This document shows positions 1 to 33,665 of a stretch of 64,000 nt of DNA, in pieces (position 1 is the stretch's first letter; the number at the start of each line of letters is the position of its first letter). The notes under the pieces are model-generated. The model was not told the DNA's origin, ran no database searches, and saw nothing but the letters and a program-made list of their open reading frames with translations. Both the position numbers and the translations under genes were made by a program. Source of the DNA: Beggiatoa alba B18LD (GTDB lineage: Bacteria > Pseudomonadota > Gammaproteobacteria > Beggiatoales > Beggiatoaceae); assembly GCF_000245015.1 (NCBI RefSeq), contig NZ_JH600070.1, forward strand, positions 4,162,780 through 4,226,779, given 5' to 3'.

Positions 1-240
1 TTTAACCTGAGTTCGGCGAGTTTCTTTTAAAAAAGACAACAGCTTGTCTGAATCAGGATTTTCAGGATTAAAAGATTGTCTGAATCAGAATTTTCAGAAT
101 TAAAAAGACAAGAAAATTAAAAGAATAAAAAATTATGTTTTTAATTCTGCTAATTCTGTGAATTCTGATTCAGACAAAAAAAGACCTGCTAGGTTTTGAA
201 AACCTAGCAGGTCTCTGTTTTTTTATAAAATTTGCAAAAC
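1..240. repeat. Family R dispersed inverted-repeat element, copy 1
   Basis: The copy opens with the arm CTGAGTTCGGCGAG followed by AAAGACAACAGCTTGTC. It continues through AT-rich direct and inverted tracts of the type TCTGAATCAGAATTTTCAG and ends with the hairpin GACCTGCTAGGTTTT/AAAACCTAGCAGGTC at about 181-213. Read on the minus strand the hairpin is followed by a T run, so it can terminate the kinase gene whose stop is at 262. The same modules recur at least eight more times in this window. It contains no ORF. Confidence 0.85.
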
Positions 241-261
241 AGGGGGAGTAATTCAGACAAA

Positions 262-1410
262 CTATTGCCTTTGATTCATTGCTAACATTTCCGTATTACG
301 TGGTAGTTGCACAGTGAATATACTGCCTTTATCTAAGACGCTTTTAACGTGAATATTCCCATTCATTGCTTGACAAAGTTGCTTACAGAGGGTTAAGCCG
401 ATGCCTGAACCTTCATAGCGACGTGTGTAAGAGTTATCAACTTGGTTAAAGGCTTCAAAAATACTGAGTAATTTATCACGGGGAATACCAATACCTGTGT
501 CGCGTACTTGTAAAAAAACCGATTCCGCTTTAATTCTAACCGCTAGAGTAATTTTTCCTTGTTGAGTGAATTTCACCGCATTCGACAAAAGATGTTGCAA
601 GATTTGTCTAACACGGGTGATATCCGCAAACATCATCCCCGTTTTATTGTTGCAACGTACCATTAATTGTTTTTCTCCAAGTGTTGGCTGTATTAAATTC
701 ACGACTTCAGTAATCAAGTCATAGATAACAAAAGCACTCGGCTTTAATTCTAACGTGGCGGTTTCAATTTTAGACACGTCTAAAATGTCACTGACTAACC
801 GCAATAAGTGTTCACCTGCTAATTGAATTTCTTTAACTTCTTCTGCTAGTTCTATATGTGAACATTCAATTAAATCTTTTTGTACCAGATAGCTATAACC
901 TAAAATGGCATTTAAAGGGGTTAGCAATTCATGACTCATTTTTGCTAAAAAAGAACTTTTTGCTCGATTTGCCATTTCTGCAACAATACGTGCTGTGTCG
1001 GCAGATTCTTTTGCATGCATTAATTCTGCTTCTATCCGTAAACGCTCTTGAATTTCTAGTTGTAATTGCTGATTTTTAGCCGCTAATTCTTGTGTTCGTT
1101 CAATAACTTTTTGTTCTAAATTATTTTGTGATTCTACTAACTGCATTTCAAATAAATCAGCATGTTCTGTCACAACATCTAATGATATTTCTAATTTTTT
1201 CTTAGTATTGTTCAATCCTTCTATTTGTTGGCGTAATTTTTCTGTTTCAGTAACAGCAACGCCTTGTTTTGCTAGGCTTTGCTCTAATCGAACGGATAAT
1301 TGTTCTTCAAGCTGCTGTTTTTCAAGCATGACATCATGTAATTTATTTTGTAATTCGTCGATTTGTTCGAGTAAGGCTTGCTGGTTCTTTGTAGAAAAAT
1401 TGCCCAACAT
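262..1410 (-). CDS. Cytoplasmic sensor histidine kinase with long N-terminal coiled coil
   Basis: 382 aa. Residues about 10-150 are rich in Gln, Leu and Glu and look like a continuous coiled coil without a membrane segment or PAS domain. A HisKA domain follows with phospho-acceptor His160 in KMSHELLTPLNAILGYS; the usual HELRTPLN motif carries Leu for Arg. The HATPase domain shows the N box (HLLSNAVKFT), G1 (VRDTGIGIP), F box (IFEAFNQ) and G2 (GSGIGLTL). There is no receiver domain, so the phosphate must pass to a separate protein. It lies 52 bp downstream of the STAS protein gene on the same strand and probably belongs to the same operon. Signal and partner cannot be read from the sequence. 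Confidence 0.88.
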   Translation of the reverse strand: MLGNFSTKNQQALLEQIDELQNKLHDVMLEKQQLEEQLSVRLEQSLAKQGVAVTETEKLRQQIEGLNNTKKKLEISLDVVTEHADLFEMQLVESQNNLEQKVIERTQELAAKNQQLQLEIQERLRIEAELMHAKESADTARIVAEMANRAKSSFLAKMSHELLTPLNAILGYSYLVQKDLIECSHIELAEEVKEIQLAGEHLLRLVSDILDVSKIETATLELKPSAFVIYDLITEVVNLIQPTLGEKQLMVRCNNKTGMMFADITRVRQILQHLLSNAVKFTQQGKITLAVRIKAESVFLQVRDTGIGIPRDKLLSIFEAFNQVDNSYTRRYEGSGIGLTLCKQLCQAMNGNIHVKSVLDKGSIFTVQLPRNTEMLAMNQRQ

Positions 1411-28952: not shown

Positions 28953-28975
28953 TAAGACGGACATTGTCCGTCTTA
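28953..28975. terminator. Hairpin downstream of slipin gene
   Basis: A perfect 10-bp stem TAAGACGGAC / GTCCGTCTTA with a 3-base loop lies 10 bp after the slipin stop codon (minus strand). The T run is weak, so it may terminate poorly or protect the mRNA end. Confidence 0.65.
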
Positions 28976-28984
28976 TTGACATAC

Positions 28985-30136
28985 TTATAGCACGCCACGA
29001 ATTTTCACTAATTCCTTCAGCAAGCCTTCTAATCCGCCGTAAACAGAAATATTGCCGACTTTTTCGGTAACTTTTTCCAGCGTTTCCAGTTCTTTTAAAC
29101 GTAACGCGGTGGGATTATCTTCCATCACTTTTGCCGTATTCAGCAGGGAGCGCGTCGCGGCGGTTTCTTCACGGCGACGGATTAAATTTGCTTGGGCAAC
29201 TTTTTCCGCTTCGACCACTTTGCTTAAAATGGTTTTCATATCGCCGGGGAGAATAATATCTTTTACCCCAACACTGTGTACGACAATGCCTAAATCTGTT
29301 GTTTTCGTTTGAATATGTGCGAAAACTTGTTCATCAATCACGGTTTTATTTTCTAGCAATTCATCCAACGTCCGTGTACCAACCACTGCCCGCAAGCCGA
29401 ATTGTAGTTCTTTGTAGATAAACTCAATCGGTTTAGATAGAGCAAGGCTGAGTTTTAAAAAGTCGGTAATTTGATAGCTAGCCGATAAGTTTATCCGCAA
29501 TGTCACCTTGTCTTTTGTCAGGATTTCTTGTCCTGCTATTTCAGTTTCTTGTAAACGGGTATCGATGACATCGACAGCAATTCGGCGGTTAAATGTCCAA
29601 TAGGCATATAAACCCGCATTGAGCAATTTTAAGCGTTGTCCGTCCACGGTTAAAACACCGACGTGGTATTCAGGCACAATGGGGCTATAGATTGCGGTGC
29701 TAACGCGGGAAGATAAAGGCGCGTTTTTAGCGTAAACCAGCATTGCCGCTTTTTCTTTGGGGATTTCATAATTTTCGCTGATGTCGATAATTTCAGCTTC
29801 TACAGTGACAAAACCTTTCCAATATAGTTGTCTTGCTGTCGGGTAAAGAATATCGGTAATAACGCCATTTTTGCGAATCAGGGCAACTTGATGATTGTTA
29901 AGTTCTACCTTGACGCAATATTTTTGCATTTCCTCTGCATATTTGGTCAGGAAAAAGTCAATCATTGCGTGGTCAAATTCTGGTTTGGCAAGGTTGCAGA
30001 CTTCAACAGTTACTTTTTTAAATGGGTCAAGGTATTTATAAGTGCCTGCTTCTAAAAAGCCTTGAAAGTCACCGTCTTTAAACAGTAAACCCCGTTCATT
30101 TTTACGCACGACAAACTTACGCCATAACGTCATCAT
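28985..30136 (-). CDS. Slipin (SPFH/band-7) family protein
   Basis: 383 aa. The SPFH core is seen in GVLTVDGQRLKLLNAGLYAY, DTRLQETEIAGQEILTKDKV and SASYQITDFLKLSLAL. The C-terminal coiled coil has LSKVVEAEKVAQANLIRRRE and ends with a short amphipathic tail. No clear transmembrane helix precedes the domain, though the first 150 residues form a band-7-type accessory region. From my knowledge of gene neighbourhoods, slipins of this kind occur with RtcB RNA ligase and tRNA-like RNAs in RNA-repair operons. Here two tRNA-like genes and a strong RNA hairpin lie upstream on the same strand, but no rtcB or rsr gene is in the window. Confidence 0.85.
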   Translation of the reverse strand: MMTLWRKFVVRKNERGLLFKDGDFQGFLEAGTYKYLDPFKKVTVEVCNLAKPEFDHAMIDFFLTKYAEEMQKYCVKVELNNHQVALIRKNGVITDILYPTARQLYWKGFVTVEAEIIDISENYEIPKEKAAMLVYAKNAPLSSRVSTAIYSPIVPEYHVGVLTVDGQRLKLLNAGLYAYWTFNRRIAVDVIDTRLQETEIAGQEILTKDKVTLRINLSASYQITDFLKLSLALSKPIEFIYKELQFGLRAVVGTRTLDELLENKTVIDEQVFAHIQTKTTDLGIVVHSVGVKDIILPGDMKTILSKVVEAEKVAQANLIRRREETAATRSLLNTAKVMEDNPTALRLKELETLEKVTEKVGNISVYGGLEGLLKELVKIRGVL

Positions 30137-30346
30137 GACTATTCCTCTATTTGATTCTCAATGGCAGGATTTGCAATAAATAATGTGACTGCTCCACCCC
30201 ACATGTGGGCGTTGGTGTAGGGATGCGATTATCTAACGACCGTTTTATTGCCCGTCTGCTAAGGTGTCAACACCGCCACAGCGTTACATAAGACGGAGGA
30301 AAAATAACGGCATGTCCTCTCTTGCCCAACGCGCAAAACCTGCGCA

Positions 30347-30402
30347 GGCTGTTAAACAATCTGTTGCTAACCGAGCCAGCAGACTGTTTAACGGGAACAG
30401 CC
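30347..30402 (-). ncRNA. Strong RNA hairpin between tRNA-like genes and slipin
   Basis: On the minus strand TTAAACAGTCTG pairs with CAGATTGTTTAA (one G-U), extended by outer GGCTG / CAGCC, around a 16-base loop. The surrounding 30137-30420 segment is GC-richer than the flanks, has no convincing ORF and lies between the tRNA-like genes and the slipin start. It could be a separate small RNA or part of the slipin mRNA leader. Confidence 0.55.
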
Positions 30403-30419
30403 ACGGGTACGACGCGATA

Positions 30420-30492
30420 GTTTAGGGTAGGATTCGAACCTACTACAGGTTGATTGGAAGTCAACTGCTCTACCAGAATGAGCTACCTAGAA
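30420..30492 (-). tRNA. tRNA-like gene, anticodon UCC (Gly type), imperfect acceptor
   Basis: Minus strand. The D stem is GCTC/GAGC, the anticodon stem GTTGA/TCAAC with loop CTTCCAA (anticodon TCC), and the T arm GTAGG-TTCGAAT-CCTAC is perfect. The acceptor stem TTCTAGG/CCTAAAC pairs at only five of seven positions and no CCA is encoded. It lies four bases after the next tRNA-like gene. It may be a divergent tRNA, a decaying one, or a tRNA mimic. Confidence 0.7.
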
Positions 30493-30496
30493 AAGG

Positions 30497-30572
30497 TGGA
30501 GTCCAATGCAGGAGTTGAACCTGCTACCTTAATTACCCAGTAATTACGCTCTAACCTGTGAGCTAATTGGAC
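30497..30572 (-). tRNA. tRNA-like gene, anticodon UGG (Pro type), CCA encoded
   Basis: Minus strand. The acceptor GTCCAAT/ATTGGAC is a perfect 7-bp stem followed by T and CCA. The D arm GCTC-ACAGGTTA-GAGC and T arm GCAGG-TTCAACT-CCTGC are canonical. The anticodon stem TAATT/AATTA has loop ACTGGGT, giving TGG at 34-36 but C instead of the near-universal T at position 33; the palindromic TAATTA stem can close to a 5-base loop. The cloverleaf is otherwise complete. Confidence 0.75.
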
Positions 30573-30838
30573 GGGATAGACAAACTTGTCATTGGTACAC
30601 ACCGCTTCAATTTGCAGAGGCAGTGCGCCAGATGGGCACACAGAACCCAGTCCGCTGAATGATAGACTTGCAATATCCGCTTTATAGTGTGCATGAAAAT
30701 TAAATTGAATGCTATGAGGGAATTAACTCATCAAGAAAATAGGTTAAGTGAATATCAGTTAAATTAATTTGCTATAGTGCAGTAGAGAAGAAAAATAACA
30801 TTATTATAAATGATTTATTATTAAGAGGTTACGCTATC

Positions 30839-31951
30839 ATGATTCGTCCTGCTCATTTAGACGATATTGAAGCTTTGTTAGTGATTGAGAATCTTTGTTT
30901 TAATACTAATCGGTTATCACGTCGTAATTTTCGGTATTTACTCAGTAAGGCGCACGCCCATACGATTGTTGATGAAGAGGCGGGCGCGATTCGGGGTTAT
31001 ACCATGCTGCTATTAAGTCATGGTACGTCTATGGCGCGTTTATATTCCTTAGCGGTACATCCTGATTATCGTCAGCAGGGTGTTGCTCAGGTGTTATTAA
31101 CGGCTGCTGAGGACATTGCTTTGTCACATGAGTGTGTATCATTACGTTTAGAAACACGTGGCGATAATATGGCGATGCAGCATTTAGTCAAGAAAAATGA
31201 GTATAAGTATTTTGAAGAAGTTTCTGATTATTATGAAGACCATATGCTAGCTTTACGGTTTGAAAAGTTTTTAGCTCCGCATTTGGCGCGGGAAATGGTC
31301 AGCGTCCCCTTTTATCAACAGACGCTTGAGTTTACCTGTGGACCTTCCGCGCTCATGATGGCAATGAGCGCGTTAGATAAGAATTTAGAGTTAAATCGGC
31401 GTTTAGAATTGCGTATTTGGCGCGAGGCAACCACGATTTTTATGACTTCTGGGCATGGTGGCTGTGGTCCTTATGGACTAGCATTATCAGCCTATCATCG
31501 CGGTTATGAGGTTGAAATTTATGTCAGTGATAAAACAGCAACTGAAACAATGTTTATCGATTCAGTACGTAATCCTGAGAAAAAAGCCGTATTACGCTTG
31601 GTTGAAGAAGATTTTTTAGAAGAAATTCGCCGTTCATCGATTAACTTAGTTTATAGCAATATTAATGTTGCTGGGATTAAAGCAAAGTTTGATGCGGGTG
31701 CAATTCCTTTAGTATTAATTAGTTCTTATCGTATTTATCGAGAGAAATTTCCGCATTGGGTTGTTATCACAGGGTTTGATGATACTTATATTTATGTGCA
31801 TGACCCTTTAGTGGATAGTGGCGCAGATGAAAGTGAAATGGACTCGATTAATATGCCAATTTTACGCAAAGATTTTGACCGTATGGCACGTTATGGAAAA
31901 TCGGCACAAAAAGCGGTTTTATTTTTAAAAAAACGTGCAAATCCTGTTTAA
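30839..31951 (+). CDS. GNAT acetyltransferase fused to C39-like peptidase
   Basis: 370 aa. Residues 1-140 are a RimI-like GNAT domain with the acetyl-CoA loop LYSLAVHPDYRQQGVAQVLL. Residues about 155-365 are a papain-like C39 peptidase domain with Gln161, catalytic Cys167 (TCGPSALMMA), His306 (PHWVVITGF) and Asp322 (HDPL); the triad is complete. C39 peptidases usually cut leader peptides after Gly-Gly. No transporter is fused. It is followed, after 244 bp, by a RimK-like ATP-grasp ligase, a pairing seen in many proteobacteria and predicted to modify or make peptides; the natural substrate is unknown to me. Confidence 0.88.
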   Translation: MIRPAHLDDIEALLVIENLCFNTNRLSRRNFRYLLSKAHAHTIVDEEAGAIRGYTMLLLSHGTSMARLYSLAVHPDYRQQGVAQVLLTAAEDIALSHECVSLRLETRGDNMAMQHLVKKNEYKYFEEVSDYYEDHMLALRFEKFLAPHLAREMVSVPFYQQTLEFTCGPSALMMAMSALDKNLELNRRLELRIWREATTIFMTSGHGGCGPYGLALSAYHRGYEVEIYVSDKTATETMFIDSVRNPEKKAVLRLVEEDFLEEIRRSSINLVYSNINVAGIKAKFDAGAIPLVLISSYRIYREKFPHWVVITGFDDTYIYVHDPLVDSGADESEMDSINMPILRKDFDRMARYGKSAQKAVLFLKKRANPV

Positions 31952-32195
31952 ATAATTAGGTCGTACTAAACAAGTCAGGTTTTAAATGCACAAATCCTGA
32001 TGCAGACAATCATGTTTTAAATTCAGTCCACCCTGATTTAGATAGTTTTTTTCAACAGTCGCCTATGAAAAACAGGGTTTAACAAGAACTAACAAAAGTT
32101 TAATCTGTGAACAAATGTTTTTTCATAGCGACTTCACATACATCTTCTTATTATTTTATTCTCCATATTAGACCGTCTTGAGGTAAACAATTAAT

Positions 32196-33665
32196 ATGCC
32201 CCCCCACCTTGTGGTTGTTGAAAATACAGCCGACTGGCAAGCGTCTTTTCCAAGTATGCAAGTAGTGACTGTAAAAGACTATATTTCACAACCTTACTAC
32301 TTTTCTTTAAAAAACGTCCGCGTTATCAATCTCTGCCGTAGTTACCGTTATTTAAGTCGCGGTTATTACTGCTCATTGCTTGCTGAAGCACGCCGTCATA
32401 AAGTCATCCCAAGCGTGCGCACCCTACGCGATTTAAGCAGTAAAGCTATTTACAGCTTAGATACAGACAGCCTTGATGATTTACTACATAAAATTTTAGG
32501 AAAACATGAAGGTAATAACCCAACAGTTTTAGAGACTTATATCTTATTCGGTTTTTGTGATAAGCCTGAACTGAAAAAAATTGCACGCCAAATCTTTGCA
32601 ACGTTCAGTTGTCCTTTGATGAAAGTAGAATTCAACTACTCAGGTTCGTGGCATATTTCATCGATTAAACCGCTTCATCTCAACGCCCTGTCAGAAGAAC
32701 AATATCCATTATTTATTGAAGCCTTACAAACTTACACCCGCAATCTTTCTACCCCCGAAAAAAACAAACAAGTCACCCGCTATGATTTAGCTATTCTTTA
32801 CGACCCCAACGAAAAGCTTCCCCCTTCCGATGCCGAAACCCTAGAGAAATTCATCACGATAGGCAGCGAACTAGGCATTGACGTTGATTTGATTAAAAAG
32901 AAAGATTATGCCCGCCTAGCAGAATATGACGCGCTTTTTATCCGTGAAACGACCAATATTGATCATCATACCTATCGATTTGCTAAAAAAGCAGAAAGTG
33001 AAGGCATGGTCGTGATTGATGACCCTGATTCTATTTTGCGCTGTACGAATAAGGTCTATTTGGCTGAACTATTAAAAGCCAATAACATTCCAACGCCAAA
33101 AACCTTTATTTTACATCGGGATAATTTGCACTTATTAGAACGTGAAATTGCTTATCCCATTGTTTTAAAAATTCCTGATGGCTCATTTTCTCGCGGTGTT
33201 TTTAAAGCGGAAACGCCTGAAGCCCTATTAGAAATGACCAATCGATTATTTAAAGAATCCGATATCTTATTAGCACAAGAATATCTATATACCGCTTTTG
33301 ATTGGCGAATAGGAATATTAAACCGCAAAGCGATTTTTGCTTGTCAATATTTTATGTCAGAAGCGCACTGGCAAATCGTGAAACACAGTTCTAACGGTGA
33401 ATTTGATTATGGAACATTCCGCACATTTGAGGTTGAAGATACCCCCAAAAAGGTAATTAAAACCGCTGTTAAAGCCGCTAGCCAAATCGGTGATGGATTC
33501 TATGGAGTGGATTTAAAACAGACTGATAAAGGCGTTGTTGTTATTGAAATTAATGACAATCCCAACTTGGATGAAGGCGTAGAAAATGCTGTGATTAAAG
33601 ATAAAATTTATCATATCATTTTAAAAGAATTTATTCGGCGTATCCGCAAAAAACAACAACGTTAA
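32196..33665 (+). CDS. RimK-like ATP-grasp ligase with N-terminal extension
   Basis: 489 aa. Residues 1-200 form an N-terminal domain found in this subfamily (LVVVENTADWQ, INLCRSYRYLSRGYYCSLL). Residues about 280-485 are an ATP-grasp domain with ATP-binding LKIPDGSFSRGVFKAE, QEYLYTAFDWRIGILN and the Mg-binding end VVIEINDNPNLDEG. RimK relatives add amino acids, often glutamate, to C termini or side chains. With the upstream GNAT-C39 protein it forms a likely two-gene peptide- or protein-modifying unit. ATG at 32196 lies after GAGGTAAACAATTAAT. Confidence 0.88.
   Translation: MPPHLVVVENTADWQASFPSMQVVTVKDYISQPYYFSLKNVRVINLCRSYRYLSRGYYCSLLAEARRHKVIPSVRTLRDLSSKAIYSLDTDSLDDLLHKILGKHEGNNPTVLETYILFGFCDKPELKKIARQIFATFSCPLMKVEFNYSGSWHISSIKPLHLNALSEEQYPLFIEALQTYTRNLSTPEKNKQVTRYDLAILYDPNEKLPPSDAETLEKFITIGSELGIDVDLIKKKDYARLAEYDALFIRETTNIDHHTYRFAKKAESEGMVVIDDPDSILRCTNKVYLAELLKANNIPTPKTFILHRDNLHLLEREIAYPIVLKIPDGSFSRGVFKAETPEALLEMTNRLFKESDILLAQEYLYTAFDWRIGILNRKAIFACQYFMSEAHWQIVKHSSNGEFDYGTFRTFEVEDTPKKVIKTAVKAASQIGDGFYGVDLKQTDKGVVVIEINDNPNLDEGVENAVIKDKIYHIILKEFIRRIRKKQQR

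What the first reader, a model, noticed from the sequence alone, without database searches (positions are those of the whole stretch)
28985..30572. tRNA-like pair, RNA hairpin and slipin gene in one transcription direction
Seen: two tRNA-like genes four bases apart, each with unusual features (one has C33 in the anticodon loop, the other a poorly paired acceptor stem). A strong hairpin follows, then a slipin gene, all on the minus strand. Known, from memory: slipins occur beside RtcB ligase, Ro/Rsr and tRNA-like Y RNAs in RNA-repair operons. Inference: this may be a reduced or divergent RNA-repair module whose tRNA-like RNAs are substrates, sensors or mimics, not translation tRNAs.
Basis: partly seen in the sequence, partly recalled or inferred. 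Interest (0 to 1): 0.8.

Follow-up and report, generated by a model that had tools for sequence, protein, structure and literature searches.

The report
Slipin gene with tRNA-mimic leader RNAs
Next to a ring-forming scaffold protein gene, this bacterium carries two RNAs folded like transfer RNAs whose code-reading loops drift freely, so they probably do not read the genetic code but serve a stress or RNA-repair particle seen in many bacteria.

Summary
On the minus strand lie a structured leader RNA (30579-30673), two tRNA-like RNAs (30497-30572, 30419-30492), a structured 3' region and a slipin (28985-30136). The tRNA-likes are not decoding tRNAs: the genome has its own Gly-TCC and Pro-TGG tRNAs; 43 of 44 ordinary tRNAs keep their anticodon in the sister species, the tRNA-like pair 0 of 2. 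Of 93 related slipin loci, 62 have such genes close upstream; 50 seven-base loops show 28 anticodon triplets. In sister pairs the loop diverges at the four-fold-site rate, the tRNA body three times slower. A covariance model made here finds the leader in 77 of 94 loci. The link to RNA repair holds for the family (of 80 loci, 35 have rtcR, 28 rtcB, 13 rtcA) but not here: rtcA and rtcB are over 1 Mb away, rtcR and Ro/Rsr were not found, and three relatives have slipin without rtcB. Best reading: the mimics are RNA partners of a soluble SPFH scaffold acting in RNA damage or translation stress. SPFH plus a tRNA-like RNA was, as I recall, proposed in 2016; leader, drifting anticodons, tandem units and the Rtc-free form look new.

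The parts
30579..30673 (-). leader RNA: outer stem with AGC bulge, hairpin P1 (GGGTTC...CCC), hairpin P2 (CTGGCGCAC...GTGTGTA); the fold with outer stem spans about 30574-30678
   Evidence: covariance model R1 hit E 3.7e-17 (one of 25 training sequences); covariation of P1 and P2; single-sequence fold gives the same three helices but z only -1.3
30497..30572 (-). tRNA-like RNA 1, loop ACTGGGT (C33, read as Pro-TGG), CCA encoded
30419..30492 (-). tRNA-like RNA 2 (slipin-proximal), loop CTTCCAA (read as Gly-TCC), two acceptor mismatches, no encoded CCA
30137..30418 (-). structured 3' region, starting near the conserved GTACCCG, with the strong hairpin at 30351-30392
   Evidence: fold z -3.0; much of it conserved in L041 and L042
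28985..30136 (-). slipin: three tandem SPFH1-like beta modules, SPFH core, long helix; no membrane segment evident
28953..28975 (-). terminator-like hairpin just after the slipin stop (short T tract; weak)
   Evidence: four such sites found in the stretch against 2.5 expected

Best explanation
Shown: leader RNA, tRNA-like RNAs and slipin form a conserved block in which the tRNA body is conserved and the anticodon is not. Inferred: the transcript is cut at the tRNA-like units (RNase P/Z-type processing), and the leader/tRNA-like RNA binds the soluble slipin, which by homology with stomatin assembles into rings. The ribonucleoprotein acts when tRNAs or rRNA are damaged or translation stalls: the tRNA elbow and acceptor/T-arm, not the anticodon, are the docking surface for tRNA-handling enzymes or damaged tRNAs, as Y RNA does for Ro/Rsr in other Rtc operons. 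In this genome it would work in trans to the unlinked rtcB and rtcA, or without them, and without RtcR control.
For: Own Gly-TCC and Pro-TGG present; 43/44 ordinary tRNAs keep the anticodon in G001, tRNA-like pair 0/2. 11 non-overlapping sister pairs: loop 17/70 differences, tRNA-like body 54/664, four-fold slipin sites 518/2063. 62 of 93 loci have an ARAGORN tRNA within 720 nt upstream; 73 of 93 have an anticodon arm that my pattern parsed. Parsed loop length is not 7 in 23 of 73 (L110 is a parsing error and L143 probably spurious). Leader in 77 of 94 loci, 52 outside the training set; its two helices covary far beyond both controls and the outer stem is supported by matched versus mismatched flanks. 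In 42 family genomes the 16 leader hits below E 1e-10 fall in 13 genomes, all carrying the slipin, 15 of 16 just upstream of it. Neighbours in 80 loci: RtcR 35, RtcB 28, RlaP 15, RtcA 13. In Anabaena the slipin gene alr0740 is TrcR-repressed and chloramphenicol-induced together with rtcB and a tRNA array (PMC10272220, passages).
Against: No RNA binding by any slipin is shown here. rtcB was not found in G042, G029 and G012, which have the slipin (draft genomes, 90-99% complete). No RtcR, no TROVE in the host. Three of six cyanobacterial loci (L142, L146, L148) carry a TrcR-type box between RNA and slipin, so RNA and protein may be expressed separately there. Deleting the rtc-locus SPFH gene (paFlo8) in P. 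aeruginosa PA14 gave no phenotype in the assays whose passages I saw (pyocyanin, swimming, biofilm, oxidants; PMC13086221).
Confidence: 0.5

Rival explanations
1. Cis-acting: leader and tRNA-like units are a processed 5' region of the slipin mRNA. Processing or damage of the tRNA mimic sets slipin expression, so the mRNA itself senses tRNA-handling enzymes.
For: The proximal tRNA-like RNA lies 5' of the slipin on the same strand wherever it was called; no terminator-like site was called between them in the window.
Against: G008 has a second leader plus tRNA-like unit with no long slipin-sized ORF after it in the 1.4 kb fetched; one locus has three tandem units; three of six cyanobacterial loci have a possible promoter box between.
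Confidence: 0.22
2. Bait or competitive inhibitor: the tRNA mimics occupy or are cut by anticodon nucleases of phages, toxins or competitors, perhaps with anticodons chosen by an arms race.
For: Anticodon turnover; U36 enriched, 32/50 loops versus 13/44 ordinary tRNAs, and U36 tRNAs are (recalled) frequent nuclease targets; three Pseudomonas loci have different loops in an otherwise little-changed RNA. [quoted passage not shown]
Against: Loop divergence equals four-fold sites, no excess (p = 1.0); some lineages cap the arm with a GNRA-type tetraloop; the Enterobacteria loci read by eye (L129, L136, L137) seem to lack the anticodon arm. In Salmonella no fragments of YrlA were detected on nuclease activation (passage).
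Confidence: 0.15
3. Ordinary or reserve decoding tRNAs, like the spare tRNA arrays at related loci.
For: Good cloverleaves; 10 related loci carry 5-31 further tRNAs further upstream.
Against: Anticodon not conserved, loop lengths vary, C33 here, CCA encoded in 6/61 proximal mimics versus 28/29 judged ordinary tRNAs; isoacceptors present.
Confidence: 0.03
4. Decaying tRNA pseudogenes or integration scars.
For: Low scores; acceptor mismatches.
Against: Body under purifying selection (54/664 versus 518/2063); same order across phyla; the gene upstream differs between G000 and G001 while the block stays (the G001 stretch ends just after the slipin, so the other side was not compared).
Confidence: 0.02

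Closest known systems
SPFH/Band-7 modules with a 'novel tRNA-like molecule' in RNA-repair systems (Burroughs & Aravind 2016, NAR, doi 10.1093/nar/gkw722)
   Same: SPFH protein with a tRNA-like RNA in RNA-repair neighbourhoods
   Different: I could not read the paper (its title was seen in a reference list); the comparison rests on recall of its abstract. Leader RNA, paired or tandem mimics, anticodon drift and the Rtc-free arrangement may or may not be in it.
rsr-yrlBA-rtcBA operon (Ro/Rsr with Y RNAs; PMC7790460, passages)
   Same: RtcR/RtcB neighbourhood at family level; a noncoding RNA with a tRNA-like domain paired with a scaffold protein
   Different: SPFH protein instead of TROVE; full cloverleaves instead of a Y RNA; YrlA gathering score not reached; no RtcR, no Rsr found in this genome
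Anabaena TrcR regulon: alr0739-0740 (slipin), rtcB, trn tRNA array (PMC10272220, passages)
   Same: slipin co-regulated with rtcB and spare tRNAs under translation stress; slipin loci of other cyanobacteria carry the leader and tRNA-likes
   Different: 'tRNA-like' does not occur in its main text; repressor-controlled; the Anabaena PCC 7120 locus itself was not fetched
P. aeruginosa PA14 paFlo8 in the rtc locus (PMC13086221, passages)
   Same: SPFH gene embedded in the rtc locus
   Different: 'tRNA' does not occur in its main text; our locus is Rtc-free; the PA14 locus itself was not fetched
Eukaryotic vault (MVP, vault RNA, TEP1; the last two recalled)
   Same: SPFH-type shoulder plus long helix (Z about 12)
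   Different: the first beta module here matches SPFH proteins such as HflK, erlin and prohibitin; MVP is not among the N-terminal matches listed

Membership tests
decoding tRNA gene | anticodon conserved between orthologues | tested here: not met
   0/2 versus 43/44 for ordinary tRNAs
decoding tRNA gene | U33 and 7-nt anticodon loop | tested here: not met
   C33 in tRNA-like 1; tRNA-like 2 does have U33 and 7 nt; across loci 23 of 73 parsed loops not 7 nt (two doubtful), 40 of 50 seven-base loops have U33
decoding tRNA gene | aminoacylation and ribosome use | not testable with these tools
   needs bench work
YrlA / Y RNA (RF02553) | reaches the Rfam gathering score | tested here: not met
   no YrlA hit in the window at gathering; best 26.6 bits at this locus (L040) and 36.0 in relatives versus gathering 69
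YrlA / Y RNA (RF02553) | Ro/Rsr (TROVE) protein in the genome | tested here: not met
   0 of 3 genomes
RtcR-controlled rtc RNA-repair operon | rtcR present | tested here: not met
   not found in G000; 2 of 42 family genomes
RtcR-controlled rtc RNA-repair operon | rtcB/rtcA linked | tested here: not met
   both present but unlinked: 2980162 and 2599591 versus slipin at 4191767
SPFH/Band-7 protein with cognate tRNA-like RNA | SPFH gene with adjacent tRNA-like RNA, conserved | tested here: met
   15 of 17 family loci (the other two begin inside or near the slipin); 62 of 93 loci within 720 nt
SPFH/Band-7 protein with cognate tRNA-like RNA | physical RNA-protein association | not testable with these tools
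   needs pull-down
stomatin/slipin (SPFH) family | SPFH core fold | tested here: met
   Pfam E 1.2e-29; stomatin Foldseek E 1.1e-15
stomatin/slipin (SPFH) family | membrane anchor | tested here: not met
   max 19-residue Kyte-Doolittle mean 1.16; a hydropathy rule only
major vault protein | N-terminal MVP repeats | tested here: inconclusive
   one whole-model match spans 6..365 (9bw6, Z 12.2, rmsd 9.1, 249 aligned); the other vault rows start at 125-150; no MVP among listed rows for the N-terminal model

The most novel reading that the evidence does not exclude
A widespread bacterial ribonucleoprotein not described as such: a soluble multi-SPFH scaffold assembled with a bipartite RNA (junction leader plus one or more tRNA mimics with unconstrained anticodons), whose tRNA elbow and acceptor face recruit damaged tRNAs or tRNA enzymes, and which can work without RtcB or RtcR.
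Probability: 0.25. Interest if true: 0.85.

Novelty: new variant of a known kind. Interest (0 to 1): 0.6.

Why it matters
ARAGORN assigns these RNAs amino acids (or '???'), so annotation pipelines may list them as decoding tRNAs or pseudo-tRNAs. If they are RNA partners of a slipin, they give a concrete handle on what bacterial slipins in RNA-repair loci do, and a comparison point for Ro/Y RNA and vault particles. The anticodon drift gives a sequence test that separates tRNA mimics from decoding tRNAs.

Tried and rejected
Diversifying selection on the anticodon: rejected for now; the loop rate equals four-fold sites in 11 non-overlapping sister pairs. I picked these pairs by hand from the table, and only pairs with equal parsed loop length, so length changes are left out and loop divergence is underestimated. 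The table of all pairs counts loops of unequal length as wholly different, holds at least one misparsed arm (L110) and is not independent.

Tie to rtcB inside the family: not found. Y RNA model: below threshold. Phage origin: no match in the phage collection; one viral contig (L265, 37% identity) holds a Band_7 protein but its surroundings were not examined. Sigma-54 promoter in the window: one consensus had no match; a similar pattern occurs upstream in 25 of 93 relatives. Sigma-70 scan: of nine promoter-like sites none lies before the leader on the minus strand, so the window's promoter is not known. Vault resemblance: kept as an idea only; MVP is not in the N-terminal match lists shown. The class-wide DNA search returned what look like ordinary tRNAs and was not used. 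Regex extraction of leaders was replaced by the covariance model.

Rows dropped before counts: L070-L073 (same places as L042, L044, L048, L051); L070-L072; L051 and L073 both stay in the 94 loci. Not found by the leader model at E 1e-4: 17 of 94. Of these, five (L043, L049, L052, L147, L149) start in or close to the slipin or its RNA; seven are Enterobacteria (L127, L129, L130, L135, L136, L137, L143), of which I looked at four; L124 has a weak hit (E 0.011); L050, L078, L106 and L115 have upstream DNA and missed. In the family-wide scan ten further hits with E 0.005 to 0.1 were not counted; of 17 slipin-carrying genomes 13 have a strong leader hit.

Literature: nine searches listed no paper in the held library that by its listing describes the leader or the anticodon drift; the 2016 review is not held, so priority is unresolved.

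Full report
Setting. The window is G000:C2:4162780-4226779.

What is there. On the minus strand, in order: leader RNA, tRNA-like 1 (Pro-TGG call), tRNA-like 2 (Gly-TCC call), a structured 282-nt region, and a 383-aa slipin. Neighbours look unrelated: a class-III aminotransferase downstream, a GNAT/C39-peptidase gene upstream, both on the plus strand. No terminator-like site was called between tRNA-likes and slipin; one lies after the slipin.

Not decoding tRNAs. In the sister species G001 the RNA region is 83% identical over 263 of 281 query bases, but ARAGORN reads the anticodons as Ser-ACT and Lys-TTT. As control, 44 ordinary tRNAs of G000 were matched to G001: 43 keep the anticodon, mean identity 98%; the one exception (Leu-TAA) matched a Leu-CAA gene at 79%, apparently because its orthologue was not among those fetched. 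G000 has its own Gly-TCC and Pro-TGG. Of 17 family loci, 15 have an ARAGORN call upstream, read as Gly, Pro, Ser, Lys, Phe, Leu, Met, Asn, Ile, Asp or '???'.

Breadth. A scan of GTDB contigs kept the best 80 slipin loci (capped list). Most are Proteobacteria, with six cyanobacteria with usable upstream DNA and one Verrucomicrobium. ARAGORN finds tRNA-like genes within 720 nt upstream of the slipin in 62 of 93 loci after dropping four duplicates, loci with no upstream DNA included. My pattern parsed a proximal anticodon arm in 73 of 93: 50 loops of 7 nt with 39 distinct sequences and 28 distinct triplets; CAT is the commonest (10). 23 parsed loops have other lengths, two of them doubtful (L110 misparsed, L143 probably spurious). 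Several Burkholderia-, Acidovorax- and Delftia-type loci cap the arm with GNRA-type tetraloops. Encoded CCA: 6 of 61 judged proximal, 12 of 21 other tRNA-likes, 28 of 29 judged ordinary G000 tRNAs (15 of 44 ordinary ones could not be judged by the pattern). U36 is enriched, 32 of 50 versus 13 of 44 (Fisher p 0.001), not corrected for relatedness; a remnant of a U36 ancestor would explain it.

Rates. In 11 hand-picked, non-overlapping sister pairs with equal loop lengths: loop 17/70 (24%), anticodon stem 15/110 (14%), rest of tRNA-like 2 54/664 (8%), spacer 497/3066 (16%), four-fold slipin sites 518/2063 (25%). Loop versus body p 1e-4; loop versus four-fold p 1.0 (values). So the body is under purifying selection and the loop behaves as unconstrained. 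This argues against an arms race in general, though three Pseudomonas loci (L085, L091, L092) differ at 3, 3 and 5 of 7 loop bases with four-fold differences of only 14-26%.

Leader. Model R1, built from 25 loci with 14 pairs, hits 77 of 94 slipin loci at E below 1e-4, 52 of them outside the training set. On the training alignment 94.3% of cells pair; 53 cells change on both sides against 18.2 in shuffles (0 of 500 as high), covariation score 0.439 against 0.186 shuffled and at most 0.116 when slid; the structure came from the same alignment, which favours it. The number of pairs with a change on both sides (8 of 14) is less striking, 28 of 500 shuffles reach it. The outer stem, not in the model, pairs much better within a locus than between loci (-21.0 versus -12.0 kcal/mol; 0 of 5000 permutations). 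Since base composition differs between loci, I repeated it against shuffles of the same flanks: 51 of 65 loci lie below their own 5th percentile, median z -2.8; the window's own copy is only z -1.4. In 42 family genomes 16 hits below E 1e-10 occur in 13 genomes, all with the slipin; 15 lie just upstream of it, one (G008 C85) is an orphan unit with a tRNA-like RNA. No Rfam family besides tRNA reached its gathering score in the window.

Link to RNA repair. Clustering the ORFs of the 80 loci gives RtcR in 35, RtcB in 28, RlaP in 15, RtcA in 13, a treble-clef protein in 8 (one representative of each confirmed by Pfam; contigs are often cut, so these are lower bounds). Ten loci carry 5-31 further tRNAs upstream; six of the ten have rtcB. 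In this genome rtcB and rtcA are elsewhere, RtcR and TROVE were not found, and three draft family genomes have the slipin without rtcB; in all rtcB is in 35 of 42. In Anabaena PCC 7120 the alr0739-0740 unit (slipin), whose promoter TrcR binds, rises in the trcR mutant, and with chloramphenicol, together with rtcB; the trn array does so too (PMC10272220, passages).

Protein. AlphaFold2 (41 sequences, pLDDT 82, pTM 0.56) gives three tandem beta modules, the SPFH core and a long helix. The three modules match each other in one-against-one profile comparison (E 3e-10, 4e-11, 3e-9). The first matches the corresponding part of HflK, erlin and prohibitin (best Z 5.9, rmsd 1.9, 46 residues); that is below the level the tool calls safe, but SPFH proteins fill the first 14 rows. 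Foldseek alone gave no match below 1e-3 for this part and ranked kinase regulatory chains first. The core matches stomatin best. MVP also matches the core (Foldseek E 7.6e-11; Z 12.2 for 9bw6), a resemblance I do not press. No membrane segment is evident.

Mechanism. Shown: conserved block, conserved body, free anticodon, family-level tie to Rtc, and (from the literature passages) co-regulation with translation stress in Anabaena. Inferred: processing at the tRNA mimics, RNA binding by the slipin ring, docking through the tRNA elbow and acceptor/T-arm. The reduction of tRNA-like 1 to an acceptor plus T-arm in a Burkholderia locus and a similar reduction in three Enterobacteria loci (read by eye) fits this. 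The main rival is a cis-acting processed leader.

Novelty. The pairing of SPFH proteins with a tRNA-like RNA is, as I recall from an abstract, from Burroughs and Aravind 2016, which I could not read. The leader family, the drift of the anticodon with its control, the tandem units and the Rtc-free form are additions as far as nine searches of the held library show (listed under Tried and rejected).

Noticed in passing
L051 / L073 (G042; Beggiatoa sp. SZUA-411 in the named collection): Three tandem copies of the leader with tRNA-like units upstream of one slipin.
   Followed up: partly
L226 (G008:C85:119719-119812): Orphan leader plus tRNA-like unit with an odd four-base anticodon call and no slipin-sized ORF after it in the fetched stretch.
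   Followed up: partly
L141, L077, L075, L116, L117, L080, L082, L087, L089, L101: Arrays of 5-31 further tRNAs upstream of the tRNA-like RNA and slipin; six of these ten loci also have rtcB: possible tRNA replacement islands.
   Followed up: partly
L142, L146, L148: Exact TGTAGTAT (TrcR-type box) 176-315 nt before the slipin in three of six cyanobacterial loci; chance level not computed.
   Followed up: partly
G002, G003, G008, G023, G024, G026, G027, G038, G040, G041: RtcB matches in two pieces inside one long open frame of 544-744 aa: looks like inteins in rtcB.
   Followed up: no
L265 (viral contig, 37% identity): A slipin relative on a contig filed as viral; its surroundings were not examined.
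   Followed up: no
L129, L136 and an E. coli record (L266): In Enterobacteria the RNA region seems reduced to a T-arm/acceptor remnant; in the E. coli record the slipin is followed by a nucleotidyltransferase gene.
   Followed up: partly
window 30839-33665 (+): GNAT/C39-peptidase protein followed by a RLAN/RimK ATP-grasp protein: looks like a peptide-tagging or modification pair.
   Followed up: no
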